In this document: positions 6,636 to 64,000 of the stretch, piece by piece
Position numbering within the stretch: position 1 is the first letter of the stretch
Layout: every line of letters begins with the position of its first letter
Assembly: GCA_946811185.2 (NCBI GenBank)
Contig: OX328105.1
Location: 43,400,845 to 43,464,844 of the forward strand
Origin: Hippopus hippopus
Lineage: Eukaryota > Mollusca > Bivalvia > Cardiida > Cardiidae
Reading direction: 5' to 3'
Length of the DNA: 64,000 bases
Position numbers and translations under genes: made by a program
Notes under the pieces: generated by a model
Told to the model about the DNA's origin: nothing
What the model saw: only the letters and a program-made list of their open reading frames with translations
The model's database searches: none

Positions 6636-6744
6636 ATTGATACTGCTTCCGAATATTGATACTGCTTCCGAATATTGATACCGCTTTCGAAGTGTTCGTT
6701 CGCTGAGTGTCAAAAAATGATGAATGTATGGAAATAACGTTGGG

Positions 6745-6928: not shown

Positions 6929-6967
6929 CCCAGCGATATTTTTACATAAAATCATATTTGTTCCAGT

Positions 6968-7048: not shown

Positions 7049-7528
7049 CCCTTGTGTTTTGTTGATTTGCAAAAGAAACAGTTCTTTGTTACTCGTTTTT
7101 TTCTTCTTTTCGTTGTTTTGCTTTTTTTCTCCTCTTTTAGATCCAAAGTTTGTTGTTTTCTTAGATTATCGTTTGTAGATATTTTTTTCTCTGCCTGTTC
7201 TGTTATTTTGCAGATTTTTGAATCGGTGATATCCGTTGTGTCGGACTGCATGTCTACGGTCTGATTTTCAACCGGTGATATTGTAGTCTGTAGTGAACTT
7301 GTTTTCCATGTATTTTCGTTGTAGAATGAATTTAGTGTCCCGACGAATTTCGTATGTTGGAGATCGACAACGTTGTAAAACGATGGTGAAATTTCGATGT
7401 CATGACTGTGTGGGTTCACGTAGACAAAAAAACAAATGTTCCTGTCTGATTTTCTTTTTTGGACAATTTCTGGACCAATGTCCTGCTTCGTTGCACGTAA
7501 AACAAATATTTGTACTCTCACCATTCAT
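6985..7528 (-). pseudogene. Zinc-knuckle (CCHC) protein gene with frame change
   Basis: From ATG 7528 the minus strand reads MNGESTNICFTCNEAGHWSR and then NCPKKK. This is a CX2CX4HX4C zinc knuckle of the kind that binds single-stranded nucleic acid. That frame stops after about 45 codons. A second frame, open through the same region, continues with a Ser/Thr-rich and then strongly Lys/Arg-rich tail of about 130 residues with CFFCKSTKH near the end. The shift lies in a T-run, so it may be decay or programmed slippage. The 3' end overlaps the truncated zinc-ribbon gene and no stem-loop follows, so the end is probably lost. A TATAAATAG box lies about 65 bp upstream. Confidence 0.6.
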
Positions 7529-7580
7529 CCGATATCGTTTGTCGAGCGTCGCTTGATCTAAAACTCTGTACCTGATAGTA

Positions 7581-7760
7581 CAGCGTATAGAGCTATTTAT
7601 AAAAAAATACGCTTCACTACTAGACGCTGACGTAGTGTACCTCTACCCAATGGTCTATTTATAGCAACAGACGCTAACATATTGTGATTTAACCCCTTGT
7701 CACACTAAACGGCGTTTCCACTGAGTTGTCACGGTGTTGTTTAAGTTCCCAGACTGCCAA
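7581..7760. promoter_or_regulatory. Bidirectional promoter region, copy 1
   Basis: A TATAAATAGC box on the minus strand (about 7593-7602) faces the zinc-knuckle gene, and CTATTTATAG on the plus strand (about 7651-7660) faces the polymerase pieces. A CCCAATGG box lies between. The block is repeated at 8475-8640. Unlike the small-gene promoters it has no TCAATCC box. Confidence 0.65.
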
Positions 7761-7827
7761 GAGATCGCAGGAAAAATGCGAAGCTCCCGTGGCCTATTAT
7801 CGCGTTCCTGATGTTGATGAATAAAAA

Positions 7828-8180
7828 GTAAGAAGGAAATCAAGTACATTGATATCTGTTCTCTGTACCCTTATGTTTGTAAACACAAATCCTATCCTGT
7901 AGGTCAGCCAGAAATTTTGTCTGCTGAGAATATTGACATGAACAATATTCGACAATATGAGGACTTAATCAAATGCAAAGTTTTGCCTCCAACTGATTTG
8001 TTTCACCCCGTTCTCCCAGTTCACTGTAACAACAAAATGATGTTTCCACTCTGTATGAAATGTGCAGAAGAAAGTTCAAGTATTTGTAGCCATGGTGAAG
8101 AAAAGAGGGCTTTGGTCGGAACTTGGGTTACTTTTGAATTATTCAAGGCTCTTGACTGCGGTTATCAATTATTGCAAAGT
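7828..8180 (+). pseudogene. polB: DNA polymerase B palm fragment (out of order)
   Basis: The frame reads EIKYIDICSLYPYVCKHK, which contains polymerase motif A, and continues through HPVLPVHCNNKMMFPLC to ALDCGYQLLQ. It is nearly identical to part of the Polinton 2 polymerase (63171-64000). It has no start, lacks motifs B and C, and stands upstream of the N-terminal piece, so it is a displaced fragment. The sequence after 8180 is unrelated. Confidence 0.85.
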
Positions 8181-8474
8181 AAAAAAGTTAAAAGTAGAAA
8201 AAGTCAAAAGTCTCTCTTATATAGGTCTAGATCTACATGCAGTGAGGAAATATTCCCGTAAAATGGTCTTTACGAGTGTGTGAACCAATAATTATTCCAA
8301 GTTATTTTTCTTGACATAAATTAACGAAAGTGTCAAGGAACTGTCTTTCTTTTGTTAAGGAAGTCAGGGATATTCACCCTATTTCACATGTACAAATCTA
8401 CGAAAGAAAAAAATGCTTTCTACTTTTGACAACGCTCAAAATTCGAACTCACACCTTTTTTATATTAGTTAAGC

Positions 8475-8640
8475 GTATAGAGGTATTTATAAAAAAAGCT
8501 TTACTAGACGCTGACGTAGTGTACCTCTGCCCAATGGTCTATTTATAGCAACAGACGCTAACATATTGTGATCTAAGCCCCTGTCACTCTAAACGGCGTT
8601 TCCACCGAGTTGACACGGTGTTGTTTAAGTTCACAGAGTA
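8475..8640. promoter_or_regulatory. Bidirectional promoter region, copy 2
   Basis: This is a near repeat of 7581-7760, including GACGCTGACGTAGTGTACC and CTATTTATAGCAACAG. The plus-strand TATTTATAG is about 130 bp before the polymerase frame and probably its promoter. Confidence 0.65.
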
Positions 8641-8677
8641 CCAACAAAGGTTTTCGTTTTGATTTCTGAACAATAGA

Positions 8678-10387
8678 TTGAAATGCTCGAATCAACGTTT
8701 TTTTGCCCAGAAGAAGAAATCTATTATTAAAATTGACAATCATGACCAACTGTTTTGCAAGAGCTGTTGTTGTGGAATTTGCTACAGTGAACGTGAAAAC
8801 ACCGAAGTATGGAATAGAAAATGGCGTCGTATTTGTTGTTCAAAATGCCTTCTTCAAAAGACTGAAGCTGAGAAATTGTTACATGAAGCTGGAGTTTCAC
8901 CAACACAGTCTGTAGGAATTGATGAATACAAAAAAATTCAAACAATCTTGTATGAAAAAGGCTATGTCATTAAAGTTCACCAACAGCATTCAAAAGTGGA
9001 AAAAATATTTAAACATCCAGAAGTGAAAGCCAATAGTAAGATCATACATTTGTACTTTCATCAAAACCATTATGACTACATCAAATCTATCAAAGGTTTT
9101 CTTAGTTGTGGATATTATTGTGAGTTCTGTGATGTGGGTTACTCTAACCGGGAAAGTCATGCTTGTTCAAATATCTGCAAAGGTTGTTATCGCGAAGGAA
9201 AATGTCCATCAGAATCAAAAGAATATGTTTGCAGTGCTTGCAGTAGACGATTTTTTAGTGCTGAATGCTTTTAAAATCACAGAACTGTAAAAGGTAAAGA
9301 AAAGAAATCCATTTGTGTATTAGTAAAACTCTGCTCGAAATGCGGTGCACAATATCATGTCAGAAAGAAAAATCATGTTTGCAATGGAAAGAAAAGATGT
9401 CATATCTGTAAGAGAATTGTTAACTTTTCTCATCAATGCTATATTCAACCTTACCAAAGTAAGTTGAACCATGACAGCGATGACGAGATGAGTTCTTCTG
9501 TAGTCAAAAAACCACAGTTTATTTTCTTTGATTTTGAATGCAAACAAGACACAGGCGTACACATCCCGAATTATTGTATCGCACACAGAGCGTGTGATGT
9601 ATGTATCGATAAATCACTTGATTTTCATTGTTCTACATGCAGTGAATTTGAAGAGGGTAGGGAAGTTATTTTTCAAGGTGAAGAAACTTTGAGTCAATTT
9701 TGCAACTGGCTCTTTTCAAAACATCATAAAGGGGTTACGGCTATTGCCCATAATTTCAAAGGCTATGACGGTCAGTTCATTCTTGACTATATTGTCAAAG
9801 TTGGGTTAAAACTTCCAAAATTGATCATGAATGGAAACAATATTATGAAGTTAGAACTGAATGGTGTACGTCTGATCGATTCTTTCAATTTCATGAGTTT
9901 TGGTTTGGCAAAATTTCCACCCACCTTTGGTCTTCAAGAAATGAAAAAAGGTTACTTTCCTCACTGGGCGAATACAGATGAATTTTGGAGTTACATTGGA
10001 CCCTACTTGGATATGTCTTATTACAAACCCGACTCAATGTCTGAAGAGGTTAGGTCAAAATTCATAGTTTGGTATAATGACAAAGTTCGAAATGGTGAGG
10101 AATTCAATTTTCAGAAGGAGATAACTGATTTGTTTCACCCCGTTCTCCCAGTTCACTGTAACAACAAAATGATGTTTCCACTCTGTATGAAATGTGCAGA
10201 AGAAAGTTCAAGCATTTGTAGGCATGGTAAAGAAGAGAGGGCTTTGCTCGGAACTTGCGTTACTTTTGAATTATTCAAGGCTCTTGACTGCGGTTATCGA
10301 TTATTGCAAGTGTATGAAATTTGGCATTTCAATTCTGTGTCAGATCAGTTCTTTAAACGTTATGTGGACAATTTCTTTGAAAATTAA
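8678..10387 (+). pseudogene. polB: DNA polymerase B, protein-primed type: zinc N-terminus and exonuclease domain, broken
   Basis: This is the N-terminal half of a Polinton-type polymerase, which would copy the element using a protein primer. Residues 1-250 or so hold many Cys/His pairs (CSACSRRF, CSKCGAQYH, CHICKRIV). The exonuclease follows with Exo I around FFDFEC and Exo II around HNFKGYDGQF. Breaks: an in-frame TAA at 9272-9274, no clear ATG (the frame opens at a TTG and an ATG at 8683 is out of frame), and an internal deletion that joins the region after YNDKVRNGEEFNF directly to TDLFHPVLPVH. That removes Exo III, the primer-protein region and motif A. The end at 10387 is another junction, so motifs B and C are missing too. 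Confidence 0.85.
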
Positions 10388-10448
10388 GCAAGAAACCTGT
10401 GGTTATCCAGATCGGTGTCAATCAGACTCAGAAAGAGCAATTGCACAA

Positions 10449-10509
10449 AGACATTACGGAATATGAAGCCAAATGTGAAACTCGTGGTGTTTGTGAATTT
10501 GCATTGTAA
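10449..10509 (+). pseudogene. C-terminal remnant of the 217-residue Polinton gene
   Basis: The frame reads HKDITEYEAKCETRGVCEFA and ends in Leu and TAA. It matches the end of the Polinton 2 gene at 61736-62389 (KTRGICEFAL). A deletion has fused polymerase sequence to the tail of its downstream neighbour. Confidence 0.7.
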
Positions 10510-10760
10510 AAAATTTGTTATATACTGTTTTGCGAATAATTCATTGTAAATAATTCATTGCAAAAAAATATTTCAGTGTGAATTTTTTTTCATTGTTAAG
10601 AAATTTTTTCAGTGTGATTTTTTCATTGTCAAGAATTTTTTTATGATGCTTTTGCAAAAAAATGTTTCCTTGCGAATTTTTTTCATTGCCAAGAAATTTT
10701 TTTCATTGTCAAGAAATTTTTTTATGATGCTTTGCAAAAAAATGTTTCATTGTTTAGTTC
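10510..10760. repeat. AT-rich degenerate repeat behind the polymerase module
   Basis: Units of the type CATTGTCAAGAAATTTTTT recur. Similar CATTG/ACAATG-rich sequence follows the 217-residue gene in Polinton 2 (61560-61735). No stem-loop is present. Confidence 0.6.
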
Positions 10761-10768
10761 TGTTCAGT

Positions 10769-10790
10769 AAATAAAAGTTCAATAAATAAA
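10769..10790 (+). terminator. Polyadenylation signals of the polymerase module
   Basis: AATAAA occurs at 10769-10774 and again in AATAAATAAA at 10781-10790. This contrasts with the stem-loop ends of the small genes. Confidence 0.5.
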
Positions 10791-10956
10791 AGTTCAAAAA
10801 CAATAGATCTCTTCATTCTGTTTTTGCCCCAAAGACTTGTTCTGTCTACATTTTTTTCCATACACCGTCTCATAACTTTTTTGCTATATTAGCATGAAAC
10901 GTAGCATGGAAAAAAATGTATGGGCTTTCTGCCAGATCCGAGCTCTTTAAAAAATT

Positions 10957-10980
10957 TCAATCCACAGTAAACGTATAAAG
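10957..10980 (+). promoter_or_regulatory. TCAATCC/TATA promoter of right-arm small gene
   Basis: TCAATCC is followed after 10 nt by TATAAAG. The ATG of the small gene is at 11070. Confidence 0.65.
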
Positions 10981-11069
10981 CTCGACGTTATTTTCATACA
11001 TTCACCATTTTTGGCTCTCAGCTAACGATCACTTAAAAAGCAGTATCAATATTCGGAAGCAGTATCAAT

Positions 11070-11390
11070 ATGGAGGAGATAAAATTATCAACTATGTGAG
11101 ACTCTCCAAGAATATCTAAATGCAGGTCAATAGTTATTACAACTAAACACTCATTTCGTAGGAGAGGAGGAACAAAAACAACTACAACTATAACACAGCC
11201 ATACAAAGATCTCAGCGAAAGATTAGTTCAACTATTTTTAAAGACAACACCGGATGTCATTTTGGTTGATATCGAATTTGTGAGGAAGATTACTTTCGGT
11301 AATGGAGCAATGGTAATCAGAAAAAAGAGTTGAAACATGCCCCATTTGCCAAGCGAATTTCGGATGCTGTCATTAGAAGTGGAAAAAAAC
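11070..11390 (+). pseudogene. Small CPxC gene, copy reaching into right inverted repeat
   Basis: It begins ATG at 11070 but stops after nine codons. Other frames then read TQPYKDLSERLVQLF, PDVILVDIEFVRKITF and finally ETCPICQANFGCCH before TAG. At least two frame changes are needed to follow it, so it is broken. It is the fullest copy in length and shows what the inner copy (6410-6635) has lost. The stem-loop at 11449-11464 follows about 70 nt later, preceded by AACCTCC as in the Polinton 2 homologue. Confidence 0.55.
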
Positions 11391-11448
11391 AACGTGAGAC
11401 GAAAAAACACAACCTCCAAAACCAGGTCCCTTTTAGGGACACCCCAAC

Positions 11449-11937
11449 AGCCCTTTTCAGGGCTAACCATCTACCACGAAAGTTCTACCTTTCTTCAAAT
11501 TGTCAGACGTAAGTTCTATCTTTTTTTTCAAATTGTCATTTCTTCAAATTGTCAGACGAAAGTTCTACCTTCAAGCTATCAGACGAAAGTTCTATCTTCA
11601 AATTGTCATTTCTTCAAATTGTCAGACGAAAGTTCTATCTTCAAGCTATCAGAAGAAAGTTCTATCTTCAAGTTGTCATTTCTTCAAATTGTCACAGCTC
11701 TTTTCAGAGCTAACCCAACAGTCCTTTTCAGGACTAAGCATCTACCACGAAAGTTCTATCTTCAAGAGGACAGACGAAAGATCTATTTTCAAGTTGTCAG
11801 ACGAAAGTTCTACCTTCAAGCTATCAGAAGAAAGTTCTATCTTCAAGCTGTCAGACGAAAGTTCTATCTTCAAGTTGTCATTTCTTCAAATTGTCACAGC
11901 TCTTTTCAGAGCTAACCCAACAGTCCTTTTTAGGACT
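11449..11937 (+). terminator. Cluster of histone-type 3' stem-loops, right arm
   Basis: AGCCCTTTTCAGGGCT (11449-11464) is followed by AACCATCTACCACGAAAG. AGCTCTTTTCAGAGCT lies at 11696-11711 and 11898-11913, AGTCCTTTTCAGGACT at 11720-11735 and AGTCCTTTTTAGGACT at 11922-11937. A shorter GTCCCTTTTAGGGAC precedes them at 11426-11440. The stems co-vary while loop and length stay fixed. Confidence 0.75.
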
Positions 11938-11990
11938 AACCATTACCATGAAAGTTCTATCTTTCTTCAAATTGTCAAACTTCTTTTAGA
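11470..11990 (+). repeat. Minisatellite of stem-loop and purine-element units, right arm
   Basis: CAGACGAAAGTTCTATCTTC-type units alternate with TTTCTTCAAATTGTCA. The long frames through it (Ser/Phe/Leu-rich) are repeat translation, not proteins. Confidence 0.75.
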
Positions 11991-11999
11991 AGAGTTACA

Positions 12000-14165
12000 C
12001 TCCGAAGAGTAAAAAACTCAGAAAAAGTCTAAGTCCAACTCAGTGCTCAGGCTTTTAGAGAGAAAATTCATTCATAGATGCAGAAAAAAATCAGAAAGAC
12101 TAAGTCCAACTCAGTGATATAGGGACAAATTCCTTTTAGAAAAGAGAATTCATTCATAGGGTAAAAAAAAGTCTATGTTCAACTCAATGGTTAGGCATTT
12201 AGAAAAGAGAATTCATTCATAGATGTAGAAAAAAGTCTAAGTTCAACTCAGTGATATAGGGACAAATTCCTTTTAGAGAGAAAAAATCATTCATAGATGC
12301 AGAAAAAAGACTAAGTCCAACTCAGTGGTCAGGCTTTTAGAAAGAAAATCATTCATAGGGTAAAAAAAAGTCTATGTTCAACTCAATGGTTAGGCATTTA
12401 GAAAAGAGAATTCATTCATAGATGTAGAAAAAAGTCTAAGTCCAACTCAGTGATATAGGGACAAATTCCTTTTAGAAAAGAAAAATCATCCATAGATGCA
12501 GAAAAAAGACTAAGTCCAACTCAGCGCTCAGTCTTTTAGAGAAATCATTCATAGATGCAGAAAAAAGTCTAAGTCCAACTCAATGGTCAGTCTTTTAGAG
12601 AGAAAAATCATCCATAGGGTGAAAAAACTAAGTCCAACTCAATGGTCAGGCTTTTAGAAAGAGAGAAAATCAATCATAGGGTAAAAAAGTCTAAGTTCAA
12701 CTCAATGATTAGGCAATTAGAAAAGAGAATTCATTCATAGGTGAAAAAACTAAGTCCAACTCACTGATATAGGGACAAATTCCTTTTAGAGAGAAAAAAT
12801 CATTCATAGATAAGAAAAAAGTCTAAGTCCAACTCAGTGGTCAGGCTTTTAGAAAGAAAATCATTCATAGGGTAAAAAAAGTCTATGTTCAACTCAATGT
12901 CCAGGCATTTAGAAAGAGAAATCATCCATAATTGCAGAAAAAGACTAAGTCCAACTCAGTGATATAGGGACAAATTCCTTTTAGAAAAGAGAAATCATTC
13001 ATAGAATGAAAAAAGTCTAAGTCCAACCCAGTGCTCAGTCTTTTAGAGAAATCATCCATAGAGATGTAGAAAAAAGACTAAGTCCAACTCAGTGATCAGG
13101 CTTTTAGAAAGAAAATCATTCATAGGGTAAAAAAAGTCTAAGTTCAACTCAATGGTTAGACATTTAAAAAAGAGAATTCATTCATAGATGTAGAAAAAAG
13201 TCTAAGTCCAACTCAGTGATATAGGGACAAATTCCTTTTAGAGAGAAAAAATCATTCATAGATGCAGAAAAAAGACTAAGTCCAACTCAGTGGTCAGGCT
13301 TTTAGAAAGAAAATCATTCATAGGGTAAAAAAAAGTCTATGTTCAACTCAATGGTTAGGCATTTAGAAAAGAGAATTCATTCATAGATGTAGAAAAAAGT
13401 CTAAGTCCAACTCAGTGATATAGGGACAAATTCCTTTTAGAAAAGAGAAATCATCCATAATTGCAGAAAAAGACTAAGTCCAACTCAATATCCAGACATT
13501 TAGAAAGAAAATTCATTCATAGGGTAAAAAAAGTCTAAGTTCAACTCAATGGTCAGGCTTTTAGAAAGAGAGAAAATCATTCATAGGGTGAAAAAACTAA
13601 GTCCAACTCAATGGTCAGGCTTTTAGAGAAAAATCATTCATAATTGCAGAAAAAAACTAAGTTCAACTCAATGGTCAACCTTTTAGAAAGAAAATCATTC
13701 ATAGGGGGGAAAAAGCTAAGTCCAACTCAGTGATATAGGATAAATTCCTTTTAGAAAAGAGAAATCATTCATAGAGATGCAGAAAAAAGTCTAAGTCCAA
13801 CTCAATGGTCAGGCAATTAGAAAGAGAAAAAAATCATACATAGGTGAAGAAAAAACTAAGTACAACTCAGTGCTCAGACATTTAGAAAGAAAAAAGTCTA
13901 AGTCCAACTCAATGGTCAGGCTTTTAGAAAGAGAGAAAATCATTCATAGGGTAAAAAAACTAACTCCAACTCAGTGATCAGGCATTTAGAAAGAGAAAAA
14001 ATCATCCATAGTGTGAAAAAACTAAGTCCAACTCAGTGATCAGGCTTTTAGAAAGAGAGAAAATCATTCATAGGGTGAAAAAAACTAAGTCCAACTCAGT
14101 GTTCAGGCTTACCCTTAGCATATGGGTAAAAAAAACTAAGTCCAACTCAGTGATCAGGCTTACCC
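12000..14165. repeat. 60-70 bp tandem array in right inverted repeat
   Basis: This is the inverse counterpart of 2960-4930, with units containing CTAAGTCCAACTCAGTG and AATCATTCATAG. Confidence 0.85.
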
Positions 14166-14393
14166 TTTACTTTCCCTTAACTTTCACTTTTTTGCAGAAA
14201 AATTCCACTCAGGGAGGAGAGCCTGGCTAATTTTATCCCCAGAGTAACACCCACAAGGCCGCCATTTTGAATGCTAAATCCCTCTCAGGGAGGGTAGAAT
14301 AGGTAAAAATAGGGAATATAAAAAATGCAAATTCTTTCGGGAGGGCAGAATAGGGACAAATTTTTGTCAGGGAGGGTGATCTAGCCCACTCAG

Positions 14394-14446
14394 GGAGGGG
14401 AGCCTGGCGAACTACCCTGGCCTGGGTAGTTCGCCAGACTCCCCTA
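14394..14446. other. Terminal hairpin, right end of Polinton 1
   Basis: This is the mirror of the hairpin at 2648-2701, with CTGGCGAACTACCC and its complement in the stem. Confidence 0.85.
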
Positions 14447-14456
14447 CTATACTACT

Positions 14457-56736: not shown

Positions 56737-56745
56737 GTAAGTAGT
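56734..56745 (+). promoter_or_regulatory. Splice donor rebuilt by Polinton 2 insertion
   Basis: The predicted 6-bp target duplication AAGGTA (56734-56739) contains the exon end and the first three intron bases. The element starts AGTAGT, so the joint reads GTAAGTAG, a consensus donor. The second target duplication would lie outside the window. Confidence 0.7.
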
Positions 56746-57300
56746 ATAGGGGAGTCACTTGGGGCAGTTTTGGCGATTTTGCCCCAAGTGACTACCCCTG
56801 AGTGCCCCATTCTGCTATCCTGACAGTAAAATGGGGCACTGGATAGCAGAATGGGGCACTTTTGGAAATAAACCGGAAGTAGATAACGCCAAAAGTCCGC
56901 CATTTTGAATTCTGACGGGTAAGCACTATGGGGCACTATGACGTCACTTCCGGTTGCCCCAAGTGACTACCCCTGAGTGGCCCATTCTGCTGCCCTGACA
57001 GTAAATGGGGCAGCGGGGATAGCAGAATAGGGCACCTGACGTCACTTCCGGCTGACGTGACCTTCCGGTACCTACTCTCCTTACCCTGAGAGGGGGAAAG
57101 ATGGGTGTGGCTTAGGAAAAGTCATGTGACGTCATGGTTACAGGGCAAAGACCATTTCCGGTTGATCTTAGACTGTACATATTGCAGAGATTGGCCAGTC
57201 CCTATCTGACTTACCCTGAGTGCCCCATTCTGCTTACCCTGAGTGGGTTGTACTGACTGAAAGTCTTGAAAATTGACAATTTGAAAGATCACTCTTTCGT
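56740..57300. repeat. Subterminal region of Polinton 2 with repeated palindromes
   Basis: After the terminal hairpin (56748-56799), segments such as CCCTGAGTGCCCCATTCTGC, GGATAGCAGAATGGGGCAC and GACGTCACTTCCGG recur in both orientations. Polinton 1 has a corresponding zone of CCCTGAGTG and CCCTCCCTGA repeats with other filler. It may be the inverted repeat of Polinton 2, but its partner is out of view. Confidence 0.65.
56748..56799. other. Terminal hairpin, left end of Polinton 2
   Basis: AGGGG pairs with CCCCT and AGTCACTTGGGGCA with TGCCCCAAGTGACT, with one bulged base and a 13-nt loop. The position equals that of the Polinton 1 hairpin; the inner stem sequence is unrelated. Confidence 0.85.
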
Positions 57301-57310
57301 GTGGAATGGT

Positions 57311-57326
57311 AGCCCTGAAAAGGGCT
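57311..57326 (-). terminator. Histone-type 3' stem-loop of the 103-residue gene
   Basis: The minus strand reads AGCCCTTTTCAGGGCT, 20 nt after the stop codon, directly followed by ACCATTCCACACGAAAGAG. Six-bp stem, TTTC loop, ACCA flank and a purine element after about 10 nt all match metazoan histone mRNA ends. Confidence 0.85.
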
Positions 57327-57346
57327 GTTTGTGGAGGTTGTGTTTT

Positions 57347-57658
57347 TTAGGCACAACCTCCAACTTTTCTGCAGGCTGGACAGCTGCTTGCTGTCCGCCT
57401 CCTTAGCCTCTTTATCTGTTGCTCGTCCAGATCAAACTGGAGAGAGAACGCCGGCTCATTGTCGTCATCCCAGCATTCCGTCACTGGGATGACAAACTCC
57501 TTCTCTTCTTTGTTGGCTATCGCCAATGGTGGTGATGGTAGGCTTTCTTTCTTTTCTGTCATCAGCTTTTCGAGTTGGCCGTTAACCCTCTCTAGTTTTA
57601 ATGAGAGGGACTCTGCCGCTCTCATTAAATTGCGAACTGACTTCCGAAGATCTTCCAT
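57347..57658 (-). CDS. Small coiled-coil protein with C-terminal CPAC motif, 103 residues
   Basis: I do not recognise the family. From ATG 57658 the protein begins MEDLRKSVRNLMRAAES. Residues 1-40 have a Leu/Val heptad pattern suggesting a coiled coil. An acidic middle part (ECWDDDNEPAF) follows, then a basic LRRRTASS, and it ends CPACRKVGGCA with Cys 93, 96 and 102, a possible metal site. The TATA box is 31-37 nt upstream of the ATG, which supports this start. A stem-loop follows at 57311-57326. Polinton 1 has three broken relatives (5525-5799, 6410-6635, 11070-11390) with the same promoter, CPxC ending and AACCTCC before the stem-loop. Being kept in all copies suggests an element function, possibly structural or DNA-binding; that is inference. 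Confidence 0.75.
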   Translation of the reverse strand: MEDLRKSVRNLMRAAESLSLKLERVNGQLEKLMTEKKESLPSPPLAIANKEEKEFVIPVTECWDDDNEPAFSLQFDLDEQQIKRLRRRTASSCPACRKVGGCA

Positions 57659-58511
57659 CGTTCAAATGAATAGTGAAAAATCGTCGGCTTTTATAAGCTG
57701 GTGGGAGGATTGACCTACTTTGACATAGAATTAACGGTGACCAATCAAAATGTGTAATGATATAACGAACGAATCGATTGGAAACCGTTAATTCTATGTC
57801 AAAGTAGGTCAATCCTCTCGTCAGAACTAGGATTGACCCACTTTGATTCAGAATTAAGAGCGCGTTCTTGAAATCATCGAAGTCATCAATCTTTTTTCCG
57901 TATTTGCCCTGTCCTGTCATTGTCGTGATTGCCCAGTTGTTGAGAACTCCTTGCTTTTTGTGAAGTTCCCCATTGCTTTCCTCTGATTTTCTTTTTGTTG
58001 CTCTTCGCTGTTTTTCCTTTGGCTGTTGTTTTTCTTTCTTTACAACCGTTACGATTGACTCTACTAGTTTATGAAGACTGGTTTTATCAAAGTCAAACTC
58101 CATTGGGATTTTCACCGGAATCTGCACAGGAACAGGTGAATTACGCTTACTCTGTTGACATAATGTCTCAATATTTCTGCTCAGCTGTTCAGTGTTTGTG
58201 TTTAAAGTTTTTATCTCCTCCAAATGCTTGTTAAAAGTCTTCAGTTCTTCTAAAAGCTGAGTCAATACAGAATCTTGTTTTGAATTCAGCTGTCTTACTT
58301 CTTCAAAAATGTCGTCCAATATGGTCTTTGGGTTGATGAGTTTTGTATTTATCGCAGTCGTTGGGTTGACGAGTGTTGAATTCATCGCTGTCGATGGGTT
58401 GATGAGTGTTGAATTCATTGCTGATGATAAAATATCTCCAGTGTTTTCTTTTGGTAGGAATTCGTCTATGTCGAAACCGTTCAAGTTGTATCCATTTAAG
58501 TTGAAATCCAT
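57582..58511 (-). pseudogene. Coiled-coil, basic protein; C-terminus replaced by promoter sequence
   Basis: From ATG 58511 (MDFNLNGYNLNGFDIDEFL) the frame is open for 309 codons, but only about the first 215 look like protein. They hold three near repeats of AMNSTLINPSTA type (residues 32-60), a predicted coiled coil (about 65-120, ILDDIFEEVRQLNSKQDSVL), a Pro/Val-rich linker, and a Lys/Arg-rich stretch KEKQQPKEKQRRATKRKSEE that could bind DNA or act as a nuclear signal. After FDDFKNALL the frame runs into promoter sequence that also stands at 58575-58760 upstream of this same gene, and then into the 103-residue gene in another frame. No stem-loop follows. A duplication of the promoter block has probably cut off the true end. 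Function unknown. Confidence 0.65.
57689..57713 (-). promoter_or_regulatory. TCAATCC/TATA promoter of the 103-residue gene
   Basis: The minus strand has TCAATCC, 11 nt, TATAAAA. Upstream to about 57870 lies TTGACC, AACGTTAATTCTGAG-type and CCAAT-type (GACCAATC) sequence in inverted pairs. The block is repeated almost unchanged at 58580-58760. Confidence 0.75.
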
Positions 58512-58579
58512 TTTTCCGTTAGCGTTTTATTCGAGAGCTGAGAGTCGAATAATTTATTATTTAGAAAAAAATCGTCGGC

Positions 58580-58604
58580 TTTTATAAGCTGGTGGGAGGA
58601 TTGA
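58580..58604 (-). promoter_or_regulatory. TCAATCC/TATA promoter of the coiled-coil gene
   Basis: It is identical in layout to 57689-57713, with TATAAAAGCCGACG shared. The ATG at 58511 is about 70 nt downstream of TATA. Confidence 0.75.
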
Positions 58605-58760
58605 CCTACTTTGGTTCAGAATTAACGTTGACCAATCAAAATGTGTAATGATATAACGAACGAATCGATTGGACAACGTTAATTCTATGTCAAAGTAGGT
58701 CAATCTTCTCGTCAGAACTAGGATTGACCCACTTTGATTCAGAATTAAGAGCGCGTTCCC

Positions 58761-59150
58761 GGGCGAAAGCACCCTCGATGAAGAGGGGGTTTAAACGCTA
58801 TGTGTTATTAAGTGTAACTCATAGAGGTAGAAATGGTAAAAAATTTGAAAAGAATAATCTTTCAGAATTAACGTTTTTTGACCAATCAGGAGCTTCGTTG
58901 CTTTAATGTTGACCAATCAGAAGCTTCGTTATATTTCTTTGTGTGAGTAAAAAACTAGAAGGAGAAGATTCGTGTTATGCACAGAAATTTGGACTTAGTC
59001 TTTTTTTTTGATATGGAATACAGTGTGATTTTGAAAGAGAAAACTAGGTCTATATTGGACTTAGACTTTTTTGAGTATAACTCTTAGAGTATAGCTCTTT
59101 GACTGGAAGTCTTTTGCCTGAAAATTGACAATTCGAAAGATCACTCTTTC
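58761..59150. other. Spacer with CCAAT-type boxes and GGACTTAG motifs
   Basis: No gene is supported. It holds two TTGACCAATCAG boxes (about 58877 and 58911) and the spacer motifs GGACTTAGACTTTTTT and GAGTATAACTCTTAGAG that are amplified in the Polinton 1 arms. Confidence 0.5.
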
Positions 59151-59162
59151 TTGCTGAATGGT

Positions 59163-59178
59163 AGCCCTGAAAAGGGCT
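59163..59178 (-). terminator. Histone-type 3' stem-loop of zinc-ribbon gene 1
   Basis: Minus strand AGCCCTTTTCAGGGCT, 26 nt after the stop, followed by ACCATTCAGCAAGAAAGAG. Confidence 0.85.
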
Positions 59179-59204
59179 ATTTTGAGTCTTGTTGTCTGGC
59201 AAGG

Positions 59205-59411
59205 CTATTCATCGACTGTATAAACTACAGGTCTGATCTCTCGCCAGCAATATTCGCACCAAACCCCTGGGTCATCGTCTTCATCATAAAATCCCTCATC
59301 AGGATTTGGACAGTTGTGCTTTTGTCCAAGATACTGTAGGGGAAATGTACATTTCCCACACTCTATGTCGCATGCTTGAGCACACAAAGGGCAAATAAGT
59401 ATCTGAACCAT
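59205..59411 (-). CDS. Small zinc-ribbon-like protein 1, 68 residues
   Basis: I chose ATG 59411 (MVQILICPLC). The longer frame from 59444 would start only about 6 nt after the TATA box at 59450-59456 and thus before any likely transcription start, and the homologues all begin at MV.IL. The protein has CxxC pairs at residues 7/10, 18/21 and 52/55 plus Cys14, His32 and Cys34, enough for two zinc sites. A conserved GQKHNCPNPDEGFYD loop lies between. It is 68 residues long like its paralogue at 60703-60909, and a truncated relative is in Polinton 1 (6968-7048). I know no named family. Small zinc-ribbon proteins in viruses often act in transcription, but that role here is a guess. Confidence 0.8.
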   Translation of the reverse strand: MVQILICPLCAQACDIECGKCTFPLQYLGQKHNCPNPDEGFYDEDDDPGVWCEYCWREIRPVVYTVDE

Positions 59412-59449
59412 AGTGGAACGAATATGATATGATGTATAAAACATTGACT

Positions 59450-59475
59450 TTTTATAGTTTTGCTAGATGGATTGA
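59450..59475 (-). promoter_or_regulatory. TCAATCC/TATA promoter of zinc-ribbon gene 1
   Basis: TCAATCC, 12 nt, TATAAAA on the minus strand. ACGTTGTCCAATC-type sequence lies upstream. Confidence 0.75.
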
Positions 59476-59729
59476 CCTACTTTTGACTCAGAATTAACGT
59501 TGTCCAATCAAAAAGCTCGTTATATCTTTAGTTTTATTGGAGAGATGGGTTTTTCTTACTCAAAACTTACTGCTGGACTTAGTCAGAGGAACGATTTTGT
59601 TCTTTGGGGGAAAGATTTAGCTAGAGAGTTGATGCAAAGGACCTCTTTTTTGACCGTAACTCTTTGACTGAAAGTCTTAGAGAAAATTGACAAATTTGAG
59701 GAAAGATAGATCTTTTCTTGGTGTTGGGT

Positions 59730-59745
59730 AGCCCTGAAAAGGGCT
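59730..59745 (-). terminator. Histone-type 3' stem-loop of the 99-residue gene
   Basis: Minus strand AGCCCTTTTCAGGGCT, 31 nt after the stop, followed by ACCCAACACCAAGAAAAGA. ACCCA is the exact flank of many metazoan histone mRNAs. Confidence 0.85.
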
Positions 59746-59776
59746 GTTTTTAAAAGAAATCAACTCAAAAAAATAT

Positions 59777-60076
59777 TCAGAGTTGGACCTTTTCGTCGAA
59801 AAACTCCCGGTGAAGTTCATCCATCTGCTCACGCTTACAGCAGGTATAGTCTCTGTACATATCGAGTGTTTCTTCAATAACCCATAATTTTTTCCCAAAG
59901 TAACAGCAGTACAATCTGTTATTTGTACGTTCTGACATCTTGTATGCTTTCTCTACCACATCTTGACGATGTTCTAGCAAGTCGATCTGTTTGTAGGCTT
60001 CCATAAATTCTCGTTTGGCAACATTCATTTTGCGTTGTATCTTGCGTTCACTCGAAGTCAGTTTTCTTGTAAACAT
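59777..60076 (-). CDS. Small helical protein, 99 residues
   Basis: I do not recognise it. It starts MFTRKLTSSERKIQRKMNV and is basic at the N-terminus. It is then strongly helical with Glu/Lys/Arg throughout (EAYKQIDLLEHRQDVVEKAY) and carries a Cys pair in RLYCCYFGKKLW and another in YRDYTCCKREQ. No membrane segment is seen. It is flanked by the TCAATCC/TATA promoter (60130-60156, about 55 nt upstream) and a stem-loop 31 nt behind the stop, so it belongs to the small-gene class. No relative is visible in Polinton 1. Confidence 0.75.
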   Translation of the reverse strand: MFTRKLTSSERKIQRKMNVAKREFMEAYKQIDLLEHRQDVVEKAYKMSERTNNRLYCCYFGKKLWVIEETLDMYRDYTCCKREQMDELHREFFDEKVQL

Positions 60077-60129
60077 GATGATTCGATTTGGTTATCTAGT
60101 TGATAATAATTTTTTACAATTGAGTCCGG

Positions 60130-60156
60130 ACTTTATATATTCTTGCATAGGGATTG
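60130..60156 (-). promoter_or_regulatory. TCAATCC/TATA promoter of the 99-residue gene
   Basis: TCAATCC, 11 nt, TATATAAAG on the minus strand. Upstream to about 60340 are inverted AACGTTAATTCT blocks and further CAATCAGA boxes. Confidence 0.7.
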
Positions 60157-60660
60157 ACCTACTTTGACTTAGAATTAACGTTGACGAATCAAAATGTGTA
60201 ATGATATAACGAACGATTCAACTGGGTAACGTTAATTCTATACCAAAGTAGGTCAATCCTCCCATCAATCCTAGTTTTGATTCAGAATTAACGTTTTTTT
60301 TTTAACAATCAGAAGATTCGTTGCTTTAACGTTGGCCAATCAGAACGTTCGTTACATTTTTTTTTATCCAAAAAAACAATTGATAAATCTGTAATGATAG
60401 AAGAGAGGATTTACGCTTTTGATTTTTTTTGGTATGGAATAGTGTGATTTTTTGATACCCACACTGTCTCTGGTCAAAAAGGGTTGGGAATAGACTTTTT
60501 TTGTCTGGTTAGAGTAAAAAATTTGCAGTGGGACTGTGGACTTAGGCTTTTTTGGAGTATAACTCTTAGAGTGTAACTCTTTGACTGAAAGTCTTAGAGT
60601 GTATCTCTTTTAGAGGAAATTGACAAATTTGAAAAGAAAGATCTTTTCGTGGTGTTGGTT

Positions 60661-60676
60661 AGCCCTGAAAAAGGCT
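60661..60676 (-). terminator. Histone-type 3' stem-loop of zinc-ribbon gene 2, variant
   Basis: Minus strand AGCCTTTTTCAGGGCT. One stem C is changed to T, which still pairs with G as a wobble. AACCAACACCACGAAAAGA follows, 26 nt after the stop. Confidence 0.75.
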
Positions 60677-60702
60677 GTTTTTCGAGTATTCATCTATCAA
60701 GA

Positions 60703-60909
60703 CTACTGCTCTTCTAAACGATTTACTGGGATGATTTCACATCCACAGTATTCACAGCATACTGCCGAGCTTTCATCATAGTCATAGAATCCCTCATCAG
60801 GATCAGGACAGTTATGCTTCTGGCCAAGATAGTCCAGAATAGTAAGGCATTTCCCGCATTCTATATAGCATCTGCTACCGCACATCGGACAGAGAAGTAT
60901 CTGTACCAT
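60703..60909 (-). CDS. Small zinc-ribbon-like protein 2, 68 residues
   Basis: It starts at ATG 60909 (MVQILLCPMCGSRCYIECGK); the in-frame ATG at 60942 is only about 6 nt from the TATA box. It has CxxC pairs at residues 7/10, 18/21 and 52/55, and GQKHNCPDPDEGFYD as in paralogue 1. The two share roughly two thirds of their residues and identical length. With the same promoter and stem-loop end they look like an old tandem duplication inside the element. The C-terminal tail (NRLEEQ) differs. Confidence 0.8.
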   Translation of the reverse strand: MVQILLCPMCGSRCYIECGKCLTILDYLGQKHNCPDPDEGFYDYDESSAVCCEYCGCEIIPVNRLEEQ

Positions 60910-60947
60910 GATGGAACGATAATGATTTGATGTATAAAACATTGGAA

Positions 60948-60972
60948 TTTTATAGCTTGCAGGGTGGATTGA
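60948..60972 (-). promoter_or_regulatory. TCAATCC/TATA promoter of zinc-ribbon gene 2
   Basis: TCAATCC, 11 nt, TATAAAA on the minus strand. The region to 61136 is shared with the plus-strand gene at 61227 and is itself an inverted repeat of ACGTTAATTCTGAG and GACCAATC-type blocks, so it is a divergent promoter. Confidence 0.75.
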
Positions 60973-61111
60973 TCTACTTCGACTCAGAATTAACGTTGAC
61001 CAATCTCAGAATTAACGTCATCCAATCGAATTGTTCGTTATATCATTACACATTTTGATTGGATAACGTTAATTCTGAGATTGGTCAACGTTAATTCTGA
61101 GTCAAAGTAGG

Positions 61112-61136
61112 TAAATCCTCCCGTCAACGTATAAAA
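61112..61136 (+). promoter_or_regulatory. TAAATCC/TATA promoter of the 51-residue gene
   Basis: TAAATCC (one change from TCAATCC), 11 nt, TATAAAA. It points right, opposite to 60948-60972. Confidence 0.7.
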
Positions 61137-61226
61137 ACGAACTTTTTTTATGATCGGATTATTTTTCATTTCACAATGAAAGACAATAAAAATTTTAGCA
61201 AGTGTTTTTGAAGGAGAAAGGGCGAA

Positions 61227-61382
61227 ATGATGAAGAGAGAGATGGAGGAGAAGCTAGATCGGGAGAAAAGAAAAAAAGAAGCAAGAAGAGAAGAGGCGGC
61301 GAAGATGAAAACTCTCTGCGAGTTTTTAAAGAGACAAGGGCTTGAGTTTTCGCCCGACTTCATGTCACTGGTATGGAATTAA
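61227..61382 (+). CDS. Small charged helical protein, 51 residues
   Basis: This is the only plus-strand gene of Polinton 2 in view. ATG 61227 (followed by a second ATG) opens MMKREMEEKLDREKRKKEAR, then REEAAKMKTLCEFLKRQGLEF, ending MSLVWN before TAA at 61380-61382. An in-frame TGA just upstream limits the start. The first 30 residues are almost entirely Lys, Arg, Glu and Ala, a single charged helix. It has its own TATA promoter and a perfect histone-type stem-loop 30 nt after the stop, which is why I accept such a short frame. Function unknown. Confidence 0.7.
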   Translation: MMKREMEEKLDREKRKKEARREEAAKMKTLCEFLKRQGLEFSPDFMSLVWN

Positions 61383-61412
61383 TTTTAACCAGCCAGTGAA
61401 TGGAGAAAAAAC

Positions 61413-61428
61413 AGCCCTTTTCAGGGCT
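61413..61428 (+). terminator. Histone-type 3' stem-loop of the 51-residue gene
   Basis: AGCCCTTTTCAGGGCT followed by ACCATTCCCCAAGAAAGAGC. This is the closest match to a metazoan histone 3' end, including CAAGAAAGA at the usual distance. It is on the plus strand, so the signal follows gene direction, not element direction. Confidence 0.9.
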
Positions 61429-61547
61429 ACCATTCCCCAAGAAAGAGCTTTTCTTTCGAATTGTCAATTTTTTCTCTCAAAAGACTTACAGTCCAAAGAC
61501 TTACAGTCAGAAGAAAAAAAGTCAAGTCCAGAATTATTTCATATGTT

Positions 61548-61553
61548 TTTTTA
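61548..61553 (-). terminator. Polyadenylation signal behind the 217-residue gene
   Basis: The minus strand has AATAAA at this place, about 185 nt after the stop at 61736. The 3' region is ACAATG/CATTG-rich as in Polinton 1 (10510-10760). No stem-loop belongs to this gene; the one at 61413 is on the other strand. Confidence 0.5.
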
Positions 61554-61735
61554 TTCAAACAATTTTGTACAATGAAACAAGACATGAACTGTGAAAAACA
61601 ATGGAATGAAAAAAACAATATCTGTTAAAAAACATTGAAAATGAAAAAACAATATCTGTGCAAAAAAACAATTTAGCATAAAAACATTTCGTACAATATA
61701 ACATTTCATACAATATAACATTTTACAATGCAAAT

Positions 61736-62389
61736 TCACAATGCAAATTCACAAATGCCCCGAGTTTTCCATTTGTCTTCATGTTCCATAATAACTGTAT
61801 GCAATTGCTCATTAACCAAATACAATGGATATTCACTGTCCATCTCTCTGAATTCACGTATTCCTCTAAATGGAAAAACATGTTTTGTAACGCCTTTTGT
61901 TGAAAGGGATGAATATACACTTTCTTCTGTAACATCTCTATCAAATAAAATATAGCCTTCCAAGGTATCCACTAATTCTTCATCGTTTTGAATAAATCCT
62001 CTTTTGTAGCGTACGTAAAAGTTAAATAAAACTGATTTCATTTTCAGAACGTTCAGAAAGCTTTCTTCTGTTCTTCCTATGATAATAAAGCACCAGCGAC
62101 TTGTGGATCGGATTTGTTTACCGATAGCACCATCTTTCCACCAACAAGATGCTAAATAAGCTTTGAGAACGAAATCTAAATCCAAATCGTCTACCATCAT
62201 AGCTATAAAGTTGTGTATAGCATACAACTTGCAGGACGGATCTCCTTTTGCAAAACCTTTGTGCAATTTATCTATCCAAAGTTTCACACAGTCGAATTTA
62301 ATGTGAAGTTGCGTTTGTTCATCGAGCGTATGCTGTTGAACGAATTCTCCATAAATCTTTTCACGTAGTTCTATTGGTAAAGGCAGCAT
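61736..62389 (-). CDS. Unrecognised 217-residue protein downstream of the polymerase
   Basis: From ATG 62389 the protein begins MLPLPIELREKIYGEFVQQH. The start loosely resembles an F-box (LPxELREKI), but I cannot confirm this. The middle part is mixed helix and strand with YLASCWWKDGAIGKQIRSTS and WCFIIIGRTEESFLNVLKMK; the end is WKTRGICEFAL. No membrane segment or metal motif is seen. A TATAAAACG box (62470-62476) lies about 80 nt upstream inside the polymerase end, without TCAATCC. Polinton 1 keeps only its last residues (10449-10509), again directly behind polymerase sequence, so the two genes are neighbours in the ancestor. Confidence 0.75.
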   Translation of the reverse strand: MLPLPIELREKIYGEFVQQHTLDEQTQLHIKFDCVKLWIDKLHKGFAKGDPSCKLYAIHNFIAMMVDDLDLDFVLKAYLASCWWKDGAIGKQIRSTSRWCFIIIGRTEESFLNVLKMKSVLFNFYVRYKRGFIQNDEELVDTLEGYILFDRDVTEESVYSSLSTKGVTKHVFPFRGIREFREMDSEYPLYLVNEQLHTVIMEHEDKWKTRGICEFAL

Positions 62390-62469
62390 AATTTTTCAGT
62401 GATATTATTTTACGTCTTACTCGGGCCGTTCAGCTCAAAACAATGTAACATGGAATTATCTTCTCAACG

Positions 62470-62476
62470 TTTTATA
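62470..62476 (-). promoter_or_regulatory. TATA box of the 217-residue gene
   Basis: TATAAAA on the minus strand, overlapping the end of the polymerase frame. No TCAATCC box lies upstream. Confidence 0.5.
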
Positions 62477-62502
62477 GCCATAGGGTACAGTGTCAGTAAC
62501 AT

Positions 62503-63135
62503 TTACAATAACTCTCTTGGTGTATACAGAAGAAACGTTTTTGTTTGCGGTTCACTGGTGACCGTTCTATCTCTATGTGTTTTGATTCTACAATCATATT
62601 CAATTTTGATTTCTGTAGTGCGACTCAAAGCACATTTTGAATATGTATCGAAATTCACCACCTGACTTTTATTGTAATCCAAAGTAATCCCCTTCACTTT
62701 ACATTTGCTTTTCACTTTTCCATCTTTTGTTTTCATTTTGTAAGCATAATTCTTTGGTCCTAGTCCTCTGAAATGAGTGATTTTACAATCAGGCTCTTCA
62801 TCAGTCCATTTTCCTAGTCTGCTATTAATAATGGGAGGGTTCCATAATTCAGGATCATGAATGTACATGCAACTATCTGTATCGAAATACAGAACTCTAT
62901 CCTTTAACTTTTCAAGAACGCTGTACAATTCCAGCCTTGCATAAGCTGTTACGTAGGCTCCTACAATAACATTGGCTGTAGCGTGAGTATCAATATGTTC
63001 CAACTTTGTTTCGTAGTTGACCAAGATGAATGGACAGTCATCGTCAAAGATTTCTACATGCTTCACAGTGAAATTTGGATTGGTGACCAATTCAAAATAT
63101 TTAGACGGATCGTTGATGTATTCCGTCTGGGTCAT
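62503..63135 (-). pseudogene. polB: DNA polymerase B, C-terminal part with motif C
   Basis: This is the continuation of the polymerase at 63171-64000 after a break. It includes FDDDCPFILVNYE, AYVTAYARLELY, and motif C in VLYFDTDSCMYIHDPEL, with both catalytic Asp kept. The thumb region follows (HFRGLGPKNYAYKMK, VKGITLDYN), ending FLLYTPRELL. The frame from 63135 starts at an internal Met just behind motif B, so it is not a separate gene. The final residues may also be affected by a frame change at 62503. Confidence 0.85.
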
Positions 63136-63170
63136 TTTTTCACGCTGGGCTAATTTTCACCAAAGACAGT

Positions 63171-64000
63171 TCAACATAATCTTAGCAAAGGATCTTCTCC
63201 CAGGATTTTTTTAATACAACTTGGATCAAGACGAATACCTTCTGCCTCCTCATATTCACGAATAAACTGTTCTTTTTCTGAATCTGATTGACACCAACTG
63301 GGATATCCGCTAGCTTCTTGCTTAATTTTCAAGAAATTATCCACATAGCCTTTAAAGGACTGATCCGACACAGAATCGAATTGCCAAATTTCATACACTT
63401 GCAATAGCCGATAACCACAGTCAAGAGCTTTGAACAGTTGAAAAGTAACCCAAGTTCCTACCAAAGCCCTCTCTTCTTTGTTATGTCTACAAATGTTCGA
63501 ATTTTCTTCTGCACATTTCATACAGAGTGGAAACATCATTTTGTTGTTACAGTGAACTGGGAGAACGGGATGAAACAAATCATCTGGAGGTAAAACTTTG
63601 CATTTAATTATTCCTTCATACTGACGAATATTCTTCACGTCAATATTCTCAGCAGTTAAGATTTTTGGTTGACCTACAGGATAAGATTTGTGTTTGCAAA
63701 CATAAGGGTACAGAGAACAAATATCAATGTATTTGATTTCCTTTTTACTTTTTTCCTTGACATCATAGGCAATTTTTATTGCATTACACCTTCCTCCAGA
63801 CAACCCCTCCCTTGGATCAATGGGATCCCAATTTGGATACAGGTTTTCAATGAGTTTTTTGTACTCTTTATCCTTCTTCATCTTAGCATCGAATTCATGT
63901 TCCCATATGAACTCTACGTTATATCCCATTTTTTTGATAGCTCCTAAACCTTCAAAAGTACGTTCGTACAATTCAGACATCGATCTTCCATTGATGGGAT
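63171..64000 (-). pseudogene. polB: DNA polymerase B, protein-primed type, palm part with motif A; partial and broken
   Basis: The frame is open to the window edge, so the Met at 63980 is not the start. It covers the region before motif A (YERTFEGLGAIKKMGYNVEF) and motif A itself in EIKYIDICSLYPYVCKHKSY. It then passes a Cys-rich insert (NNKMMFPLCMKCAEE) and VYEIWQFDSVSDQSFKGYVD, ending just before motif B. There the reading frame changes near 63185, and a TGA falls inside the motif B helix region near 63145, so no full-length polymerase can be made from this copy. The type is that of Polintons/Mavericks and related adintoviruses. The polymerase would replicate the element DNA from a protein primer in the nucleus. 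Confidence 0.85.

What the first reader, a model, noticed from the sequence alone, without database searches (positions are those of the whole stretch)
57311..61428. Polinton small genes end in histone-type 3' stem-loops
Five small genes of Polinton 2 on both strands each have AGCCCTTTTCAGGGCT (one wobble variant) 20-31 nt after the stop. It is directly followed by ACCA, ACCCA or AACCA, and 8-11 nt later by a purine element of the type CAAGAAAGA. Length, 6-bp stem, TTTC loop, flank and downstream element match the SLBP/U7-dependent ends of metazoan replication-dependent histone mRNAs (established knowledge). I know of no description of this in Polintons. It would make these transcripts non-polyadenylated and tied to S phase, when the element could replicate.
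Basis: partly seen in the sequence, partly recalled or inferred. Interest (0 to 1): 0.95.

Follow-up and report, generated by a model that had tools for sequence, protein, structure and literature searches.

The report
Mobile element genes dressed as histones
Small genes of a very abundant mobile DNA element end in the special hairpin of animal histone genes, and some also carry a copy of a host histone promoter, so the element probably borrows the host's S-phase histone production line.

Summary
Observation confirmed. All five hairpins exist where stated, 20-31 nt after same-strand stops. Thirteen more lie in a second element in the window. Eleven distinct stems pair in 66 of 66 cells. RF00032 finds all five in Polinton 2, below its cut-off. 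The host assembly holds 5,922 exact copies, against 0 of the reversed pattern. Of the first 48 of 100 listed, 42 follow an ORF stop within 120 nt, against 3 on the antisense side. The host's own histone array settled the interpretation. All five host histone genes end in the same type of stem-loop, with an (A)TTGTC-like box 29-32 nt downstream; the element's copies have that box at nearly the same place. The Polinton 2 small-gene promoters also resemble the host H2A promoter: the best 24 of 3,650 overlapping window segments all lie in Polinton 2. So these genes carry a histone-type 3' end, and in Polinton 2 a histone-type promoter, while coding unrelated proteins. SLBP/U7 processing and S-phase coupling are the best explanation but remain inferred, with no RNA data. 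Caveats: the basal stem pair is A-U, not G-C, and the poly(A) contrast is weak.

The parts
57311..57326 (-). Stem-loop of gene A, 20 nt after stop
   Evidence: (29.9 bits)
59163..59178 (-). Stem-loop of gene B, 26 nt after stop
   Evidence: (24.7 bits)
59730..59745 (-). Stem-loop of gene C, 31 nt after stop
   Evidence: (32.0 bits)
60661..60676 (-). Stem-loop of gene D (G-U wobble), 26 nt after stop
   Evidence: (19.9 bits)
61413..61428 (+). Stem-loop of gene E, 30 nt after stop
   Evidence: (24.9 bits)
57275..57310 (-). Downstream module of A: ACCA, CACGAAAGA, TCTTTC, AAATTGTC
59127..59162 (-). Downstream module of B
59689..59729 (-). Downstream module of C (AAATTTGTC)
60622..60660 (-). Downstream module of D (AAATTTGTC)
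61429..61465 (+). Downstream module of E
57347..57658 (-). Gene A, 103 aa, C-terminal CPxC
   Evidence: weak piecewise similarity to a broken copy in Polinton 1; no Pfam
59205..59411 (-). Gene B, 68 aa (79 aa from an upstream ATG), CxxC-rich, paralogue of D
59777..60076 (-). Gene C, 99 aa
   Evidence: no homologue found
60703..60909 (-). Gene D, 68 aa (79 aa from an upstream ATG)
   Evidence: 62% aa identity to B, pN 0.23 against pS 0.80; no homologue found
61227..61382 (+). Gene E, 51 aa
57707..57721 (-). Histone-type promoter box AAAGTAGGTCAATCC of gene A; TCAATCC starts 18 nt before TATAAA
58598..58612 (-). Same box before the 309-aa ORF at 57582-58511, which has no hairpin of its own
59469..59483 (-). 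Promoter box of gene B
60151..60165 (-). Promoter box of gene C
60966..60980 (-). Promoter box of gene D (2 mismatches)
61104..61118 (+). Promoter box of gene E (1 mismatch, so it reads TAAATCC)
2639..14456 (.). Polinton 1: long terminal inverted repeats, 6-bp target duplication AATAAC at 2633-2638 and 14457-14462
5010..5498 (-). Polinton 1 left arm: five stem-loops, four of them in two tandem pairs, with repeated purine/TTGTC units
6284..6349 (-). Polinton 1: three tandem stem-loops after a broken gene A copy (the outer one has an indel)
11449..11937 (+). Polinton 1 right arm: mirror copies of the left-arm stem-loops
56740..64000 (.). Polinton 2, left end to window edge; continues past the window (L060)

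Best explanation
A high-copy, Polinton-type element runs its small accessory genes as imitation replication-dependent histone genes. Shown by sequence: most such genes have a TATA promoter with a TCAATCC box (in Polinton 2 much of the host H2A promoter), a short ORF unrelated to histones, then typically 20-50 nt later a 6-bp/4-nt histone-type stem-loop, ACC-type flank, purine element and a TTGTC-type box that the host's own histone genes carry at nearly the same distance. Inferred: host factors switch the promoters on with histone genes; SLBP binds the stem-loop; the U7 snRNP machinery cleaves 4-5 nt after it; the mRNAs end without poly(A), are made and stable mainly in S phase, and so supply accessory proteins when DNA can be copied. 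The large genes seen (PolB, the 217-aa gene, the zinc-knuckle gene) lack the stem-loop, so the element appears to have two expression classes.
For: 18 hairpins against 0.30 expected. Five of 5 in Polinton 2 lie 20-31 nt after same-strand stops, on both strands. RF00032 E down to 3.6e-6 over 4,227 families. 66 of 66 stem cells paired in 11 distinct sequences; covariation score above all 500 shuffles; loop TTTC in 11 of 12 aligned rows. 5,922 exact genomic copies, reversed control 0. 42 of 48 sampled follow an ORF, antisense control 3 of 48; 46 of 48 have ATT+GTC within 70 nt. Of 40 sites with enough upstream sequence, 36 have TCAATCC and 37 a TATA box, and the 34 TCAATCC-TATA spacings counted are 18 (28) or 17 nt (6). 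Host: 58 H4 matches. Five of 5 host histone genes have an [A/G]T+GTC box at +29 to +32. Eight of 9 element 3' flanks beat the 95% background against each of the five host 3' flanks; 3 (H4) or 6 (the other four) of 9 beat the 99% level. The top 24 of 3,650 overlapping window segments against the host H2A promoter all lie in Polinton 2. B and D: 62% aa identity, pS 0.80 against pN 0.23, so the ORFs look selected.
Against: No RNA data. No match reaches Rfam's cut-off. The basal pair is A-U, while the host histone pair is G-C. RF00066 found no host U7 (uninformative, since the control rang nowhere), so HDE-U7 pairing is untested. The purine element can fold back on a downstream TCTTTC, which could hinder U7. 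The contrast with polyadenylated core genes is weak: AATAAA follows the 217-aa gene in 2 of 5 copies. Promoter likeness to H2A is strong only for Polinton 2-type copies: 18 of 48 sampled loci exceed the background maximum, and that comparison is not length-matched. The number of stem pairs with double changes (2) is reached by 138 of 500 shuffles. Copies are related, so counts are not independent, and the 48 were picked by exact hairpin match.
Confidence: 0.86

Rival explanations
1. The stem-loops are of histone type and bind SLBP, but act mainly in stability, export or translation; 3' ends are made by ordinary cleavage and polyadenylation downstream.
For: No host U7 found (uninformative). The purine element may be sequestered in a hairpin. 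The basal pair differs.
Against: AATAAA within 150 nt after the stem-loop in only 3 of 48 sampled copies. The downstream box shared with host histone genes lies beyond the expected cleavage site, which fits a role in processing.
Confidence: 0.08
2. The hairpins are DNA elements for replication, packaging or recombination, spread with the repeats, and their place after genes is incidental.
For: In Polinton 1 most sit in terminal repeats, several in tandem sets.
Against: They follow gene orientation: 42 of 48 sense against 3 of 48 antisense. Second G-C and closing U-A pairs fixed while other stem pairs covary. Flanks resemble host histone genes.
Confidence: 0.03
3. They are hairpin polyadenylation signals like those of Mimivirus and the Sputnik virophage (PMC6723459, passages read).
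For: Polinton-type elements are related to virophages, and Sputnik has a Mimivirus-type hairpin signal at the end of 16 genes (PMC6723459).
Against: Nearly fixed 16-nt sequence with histone-type loop, flanks and downstream box, of the same kind as the host's own histone genes.
Confidence: 0.02

Closest known systems
Metazoan replication-dependent histone mRNA 3' end (Rfam RF00032; SLBP/U7 snRNP)
   Same: 6-bp stem, 4-nt TTTC loop, invariant second G-C pair, ACC-type flank, purine element from +9, host-type TTGTC box near +30; in Polinton 2 a promoter like host H2A
   Different: Basal pair A-U; protein products are not histones; tandem stem-loops in some copies; carried by a mobile element
Polinton/Maverick elements and adintoviruses
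   Same: Viral/organellar-type DNA polymerase B, long terminal inverted repeats, 6-bp target duplication (Polinton 1)
   Different: No integrase or capsid gene noticed in the stretches examined (not all ORFs scanned); Polinton 1 is 11.8 kb; accessory genes in histone-type dress, a feature I found in no paper searched
Mimivirus/Sputnik hairpin polyadenylation signal (PMC6723459, passages)
   Same: Hairpin at the end of viral genes as a transcript-end signal
   Different: Specific to the giant virus and polyadenylating; here the host's own histone signal is resembled

Membership tests
Replication-dependent histone 3' end | 6-bp stem with 4-nt UUUM-type loop | tested here: met
   66 of 66 cells paired; loop TTTC in 11 and TTTT in 1 of 12 aligned rows
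Replication-dependent histone 3' end | Two basal G-C pairs (GG..CC) | tested here: not met
   Second pair G-C in 11 of 11 distinct sequences, but first pair A-U in 11 of 11; all five host histone stems begin GG
Replication-dependent histone 3' end | ACC-type 3' flank and purine-rich downstream element | tested here: met
   ACC or AACC in 45 of 48 sampled (AGCCA 2, TCCAT 1); GAAA(A)G in place in 38 of 48
Replication-dependent histone 3' end | Same downstream layout as the host's own histone genes | tested here: met
   [A/G]T+GTC box at +29 to +32 in 5 of 5 host genes; a TTGTC-type box starting at +29 to +35 in 34 of 35 distinct element flanks
Replication-dependent histone 3' end | Rfam RF00032 gathering score (34 bits) | tested here: not met
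   Best 32.0; host histones 30.0-35.2, 2 of 6 reach 34
Replication-dependent histone 3' end | Base pairing of the downstream element with U7 snRNA | tested here: inconclusive
   No host U7 found by RF00066; control rang nowhere
Replication-dependent histone 3' end | Non-polyadenylated, S-phase-limited mRNA; SLBP binding | not testable with these tools
   Needs RNA and protein work
Replication-dependent histone gene | Encodes a histone | tested here: not met
   No histone family among the Pfam matches of the five small ORFs
Replication-dependent histone gene | Host histone-type promoter | tested here: met
   Met for Polinton 2 against host H2A; Polinton 1 type shares only TCAATCC, TATA and one short H1-like word
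Polinton/Maverick | Viral/organellar-type DNA polymerase B | tested here: met
   PF03175, E 1.5e-23 and 1.7e-15, 7.4e-42
Polinton/Maverick | Terminal inverted repeats and 6-bp target duplication | tested here: met
   Polinton 1; right end of Polinton 2 not examined for it
Polinton/Maverick | Retrovirus-like integrase, capsid genes, ATPase | tested here: inconclusive
   None noticed among ORFs of 5 core stretches, but only 3 of those ORFs were scanned with Pfam

The most novel reading that the evidence does not exclude
The 3' signal shared by this host's histone genes and by the element is a new form of histone processing signal. The pre-mRNA itself carries, after the purine element, a complementary pyrimidine strand and an AAUUUGUC-like stretch resembling the 5' end and Sm site of U7 snRNA, so that part of U7's role is played in cis or the Lsm10/Lsm11 ring is contacted directly. 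The element has multiplied this unit thousands of times, turning its accessory genes into a pseudo-histone regulon expressed at the histone locus body.
Probability: 0.06. Interest if true: 0.95.

Novelty: new variant of a known kind. Interest (0 to 1): 0.92.

Why it matters
[quoted passage not shown] Here non-histone genes of a mobile, virus-like element carry that 3' end signal, with a histone promoter on some copies; one animal genome holds 5,922 exact hairpin copies, of which 48 were examined. If confirmed, it widens the class beyond histones, shows a route by which an element ties its genes to S phase without its own regulators, loads the host's histone machinery with competitors, and gives many natural variants for learning what SLBP and U7 accept. 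It also points to a conserved TTGTC-type box about 30 nt after the stem-loop in this host's histone genes.

Tried and rejected
IMG/VR held no relatives. Pattern hits (8 loci) show no ATTGTC box in the short flanks printed and are at the chance level that I estimated by hand. Protein scans and specific stem-loop+purine patterns found none. An H3 scan gave one 42% match (L011), not followed up. Genes C and D have no homologue in the protein database (A, B and E not searched); the 217-aa gene has 35.

The idea of a U7-like moiety special to the element was weakened: local alignment to the mouse U7 core (recalled) was outstanding at one of 9 sites (D; 5 of 3,654 windows as good), the rest matched by 116 to 1,543 windows. 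The same box then turned up in the host's own histone genes, so it is not element-specific. Purine/pyrimidine hairpin of at least 5 bp: 29 of 35 distinct flanks, but 39% of shuffles also reach 5 bp.

The idea that core genes use poly(A) and small genes do not was kept only as weak: 2 of 5, one of the five with only 192 nt of downstream sequence. Unrelated histone clusters found as contaminants in bacterial MAGs (L009, L010) served as control: 0 of 9 have the full module, 1 of 9 has an ATTGTC.

Papers: searches showed no description in the listings; passages read in PMC7026596, PMC12775136, PMC5011920, PMC6210712, PMC6723459 and PMC11071296; all others seen only as listings.
Full report
CHECK. 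Stop-to-hairpin distances are 20, 26, 31, 26 and 30 nt, on the strand of the gene in 5 of 5. A purine element starts 9 nt after each hairpin (sequences). The other 13 places are in a second element, Polinton 1 (2639-14456), which has 95-99% complementary arms and a 6-bp target duplication AATAAC. None of the 18 lies outside the two elements.

STRUCTURE. Twelve copies from both elements were aligned (11 distinct rows; the five mirror-arm copies and one copy with an indel were left out). All 66 cells pair. Two stem positions change on both sides; that number is reached by 138 of 500 shuffles, but the number of such cells, the covariation score and the percentage paired by none. The second G-C pair, the closing U-A pair and a basal A-U pair never vary. 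RF00032 finds all five of Polinton 2 at 19.9-32.0 bits and seven of the 13 places in Polinton 1 at 19.2-24.4. None reaches the cut-off of 34. True histone genes score 26.9-37.5 in two contaminant clusters and 30.0-35.2 in the host, so the best element copies fall in the range of real ones and the weaker ones below it.

THE GENES. The ORFs are short (51-103 aa in Polinton 2). B and D are paralogues with 62% amino-acid identity, saturated synonymous sites (pS 0.80) and pN 0.23, so they look selected as proteins. Polinton 1 has a broken copy weakly similar to A and a 25-aa stretch clearly similar to B/D. No Pfam family passes its cut-off for A-E; no database homologue for C or D. The large genes are a DNA polymerase B (PF03175), a 217-aa protein with 35 homologues and a 282-aa zinc-knuckle protein. 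In five core stretches of the element, of the closed ORFs of at least 100 aa only a copy of gene A (L060) has a stem-loop within 150 nt; two ORFs run off their stretch and could not be judged.

GENOME-WIDE. The assembly has 5,922 exact copies; the reversed pattern has none. I examined the first 48 of the 100 places listed, all on contig C1. 42 of 48 have an ORF of at least 40 aa ending within 120 nt upstream, median 34.5 nt, 39 of them at 20-49 nt; the antisense control gives 3 of 48. The flank is AACCA in 21, ACCCA in 15, others in 12. GAAA(A)G is in place in 38, ATT+GTC within 70 nt in 46, AATAAA within 150 nt after the hairpin in 3. These were picked by exact hairpin match, so hairpin identity itself is not evidence; the context is. 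Of 40 sites with enough upstream sequence, 36 have TCAATCC and 37 a TATA box; the 34 spacings counted between them are 18 nt (28) or 17 nt (6).

THE HOST COMPARISON. A histone H4 search found 58 matches, all on one contig, spaced at about 8.5 kb or more. One unit (L073) holds H1, H2A, H2B, H3 and H4. Their stem-loops are GGCCCTTTTAAGGGCC (H4, H2A, H3), GGCCCTTATCAGGGCC (H2B) and GGTCCTTTTCAGGACC (H1); the last differs from the Polinton 1 hairpin AGTCCTTTTCAGGACT only in the basal pair. In all five an [A/G]T+GTC box lies 29-32 nt after the stem. Among the element's 35 distinct flanks, 34 have a TTGTC-type box starting at 29-35 nt. Against each host 3' flank, 8 of 9 element flanks of the window beat the 95% level of 2,986 segments outside the elements; 3 of 9 (H4) or 6 of 9 (H2A, H1, H3, H2B) beat the 99% level. 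The failing flank is the Polinton 1 tandem unit at 5212 against H4, H2A, H1 and H3, and P2A against H2B.

PROMOTERS. The host H2A promoter reads ATTGG...TTAATTCTG...AAAGTAGGTCAATCC, then TATATAAA. The best Polinton 2 promoter matches it over 46 nt with 38 identities, and the 24 best of 3,650 overlapping window segments all lie in Polinton 2. AAAGTAGGTCAATCC with up to 2 mismatches occurs 11 times in the window, all in Polinton 2, against 0.18 expected. Host H2B also has GGTCAATCCTCC before its TATA box. Polinton 1-type promoters keep only TCAATCC and TATA, plus, at one place, AGGTCCGCGCTCTT as before host H1. Of the 48 sampled loci, 18 exceed the background maximum against H2A, in a comparison that is not length-matched, and 10 hold AGTAGGTCAATCC exactly. 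So the promoter likeness is clear for one subfamily and partial for the other.

MECHANISM. The simplest account is that the element acquired host histone regulatory sequence at both ends of a small gene and multiplied it over its accessory genes. Transcription with histone genes, SLBP binding, cleavage by the U7 snRNP and S-phase coupling follow from established knowledge of that pathway (PMC7026596 and PMC5011920, passages read), and are inferred. In the unbound RNA the purine element can pair with a TCTTTC-like stretch downstream in all five Polinton 2 copies; whether it helps or hinders U7 is open. No host U7 was found, in a search whose control also found nothing.

NOVELTY. Searches for histone stem-loop, SLBP or U7, hairpins or poly(A) signals together with Polinton, Maverick, adintovirus, virophage, transposon or virus listed nothing that, by title and abstract start, describes this; none of the 20 papers listed (of 240) holds SLBP or U7 snRNA. 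The library is open-access only. I rate it a new variant of a known kind: a known RNA-processing signal, with host-specific parts, in use by a mobile element.

Noticed in passing
window 2971-4925 and 12095-14167: Long imperfect tandem arrays (about 61-63 bp units around CTAAGTCCAACTCA) fill the outer terminal repeats of Polinton 1; Polinton 2 has a few CTAAGTCC-type copies after its stem-loops.
   Followed up: no
window 5067-5455 and 11476-11880: A 27-bp unit that combines the purine element and a TTGTC-like box is itself tandemly repeated after the stem-loops of Polinton 1.
   Followed up: partly
L073 808, 3596, 4761, 8279 and the H2B 3' end near 2538: Host histone genes of all five types share an [A/G]T+GTC box 29-32 nt after the stem-loop: possibly a lineage-specific downstream element.
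   Followed up: partly
stem-loops of both window elements: The basal pair is A-U in all 11 distinct element stems compared, while the host's histone stems begin G-C: a consistent tag separating element from host.
   Followed up: partly
L061-L064: Core of the element seems to be only a polymerase of up to 1368 aa, the 217/218-aa protein and a 282-aa zinc-knuckle protein; no integrase or capsid noticed, so how it integrates is unclear.
   Followed up: partly
window 57582-58511: A 309-aa ORF with the same promoter lacks a stem-loop and runs into the promoter of gene A; it may have lost its 3' end by recombination between promoter repeats.
   Followed up: no
L009, L010: Bacterial MAGs hold contaminating eukaryotic histone arrays (L009 with 5S, U1 and U2 genes alongside).
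   Followed up: partly
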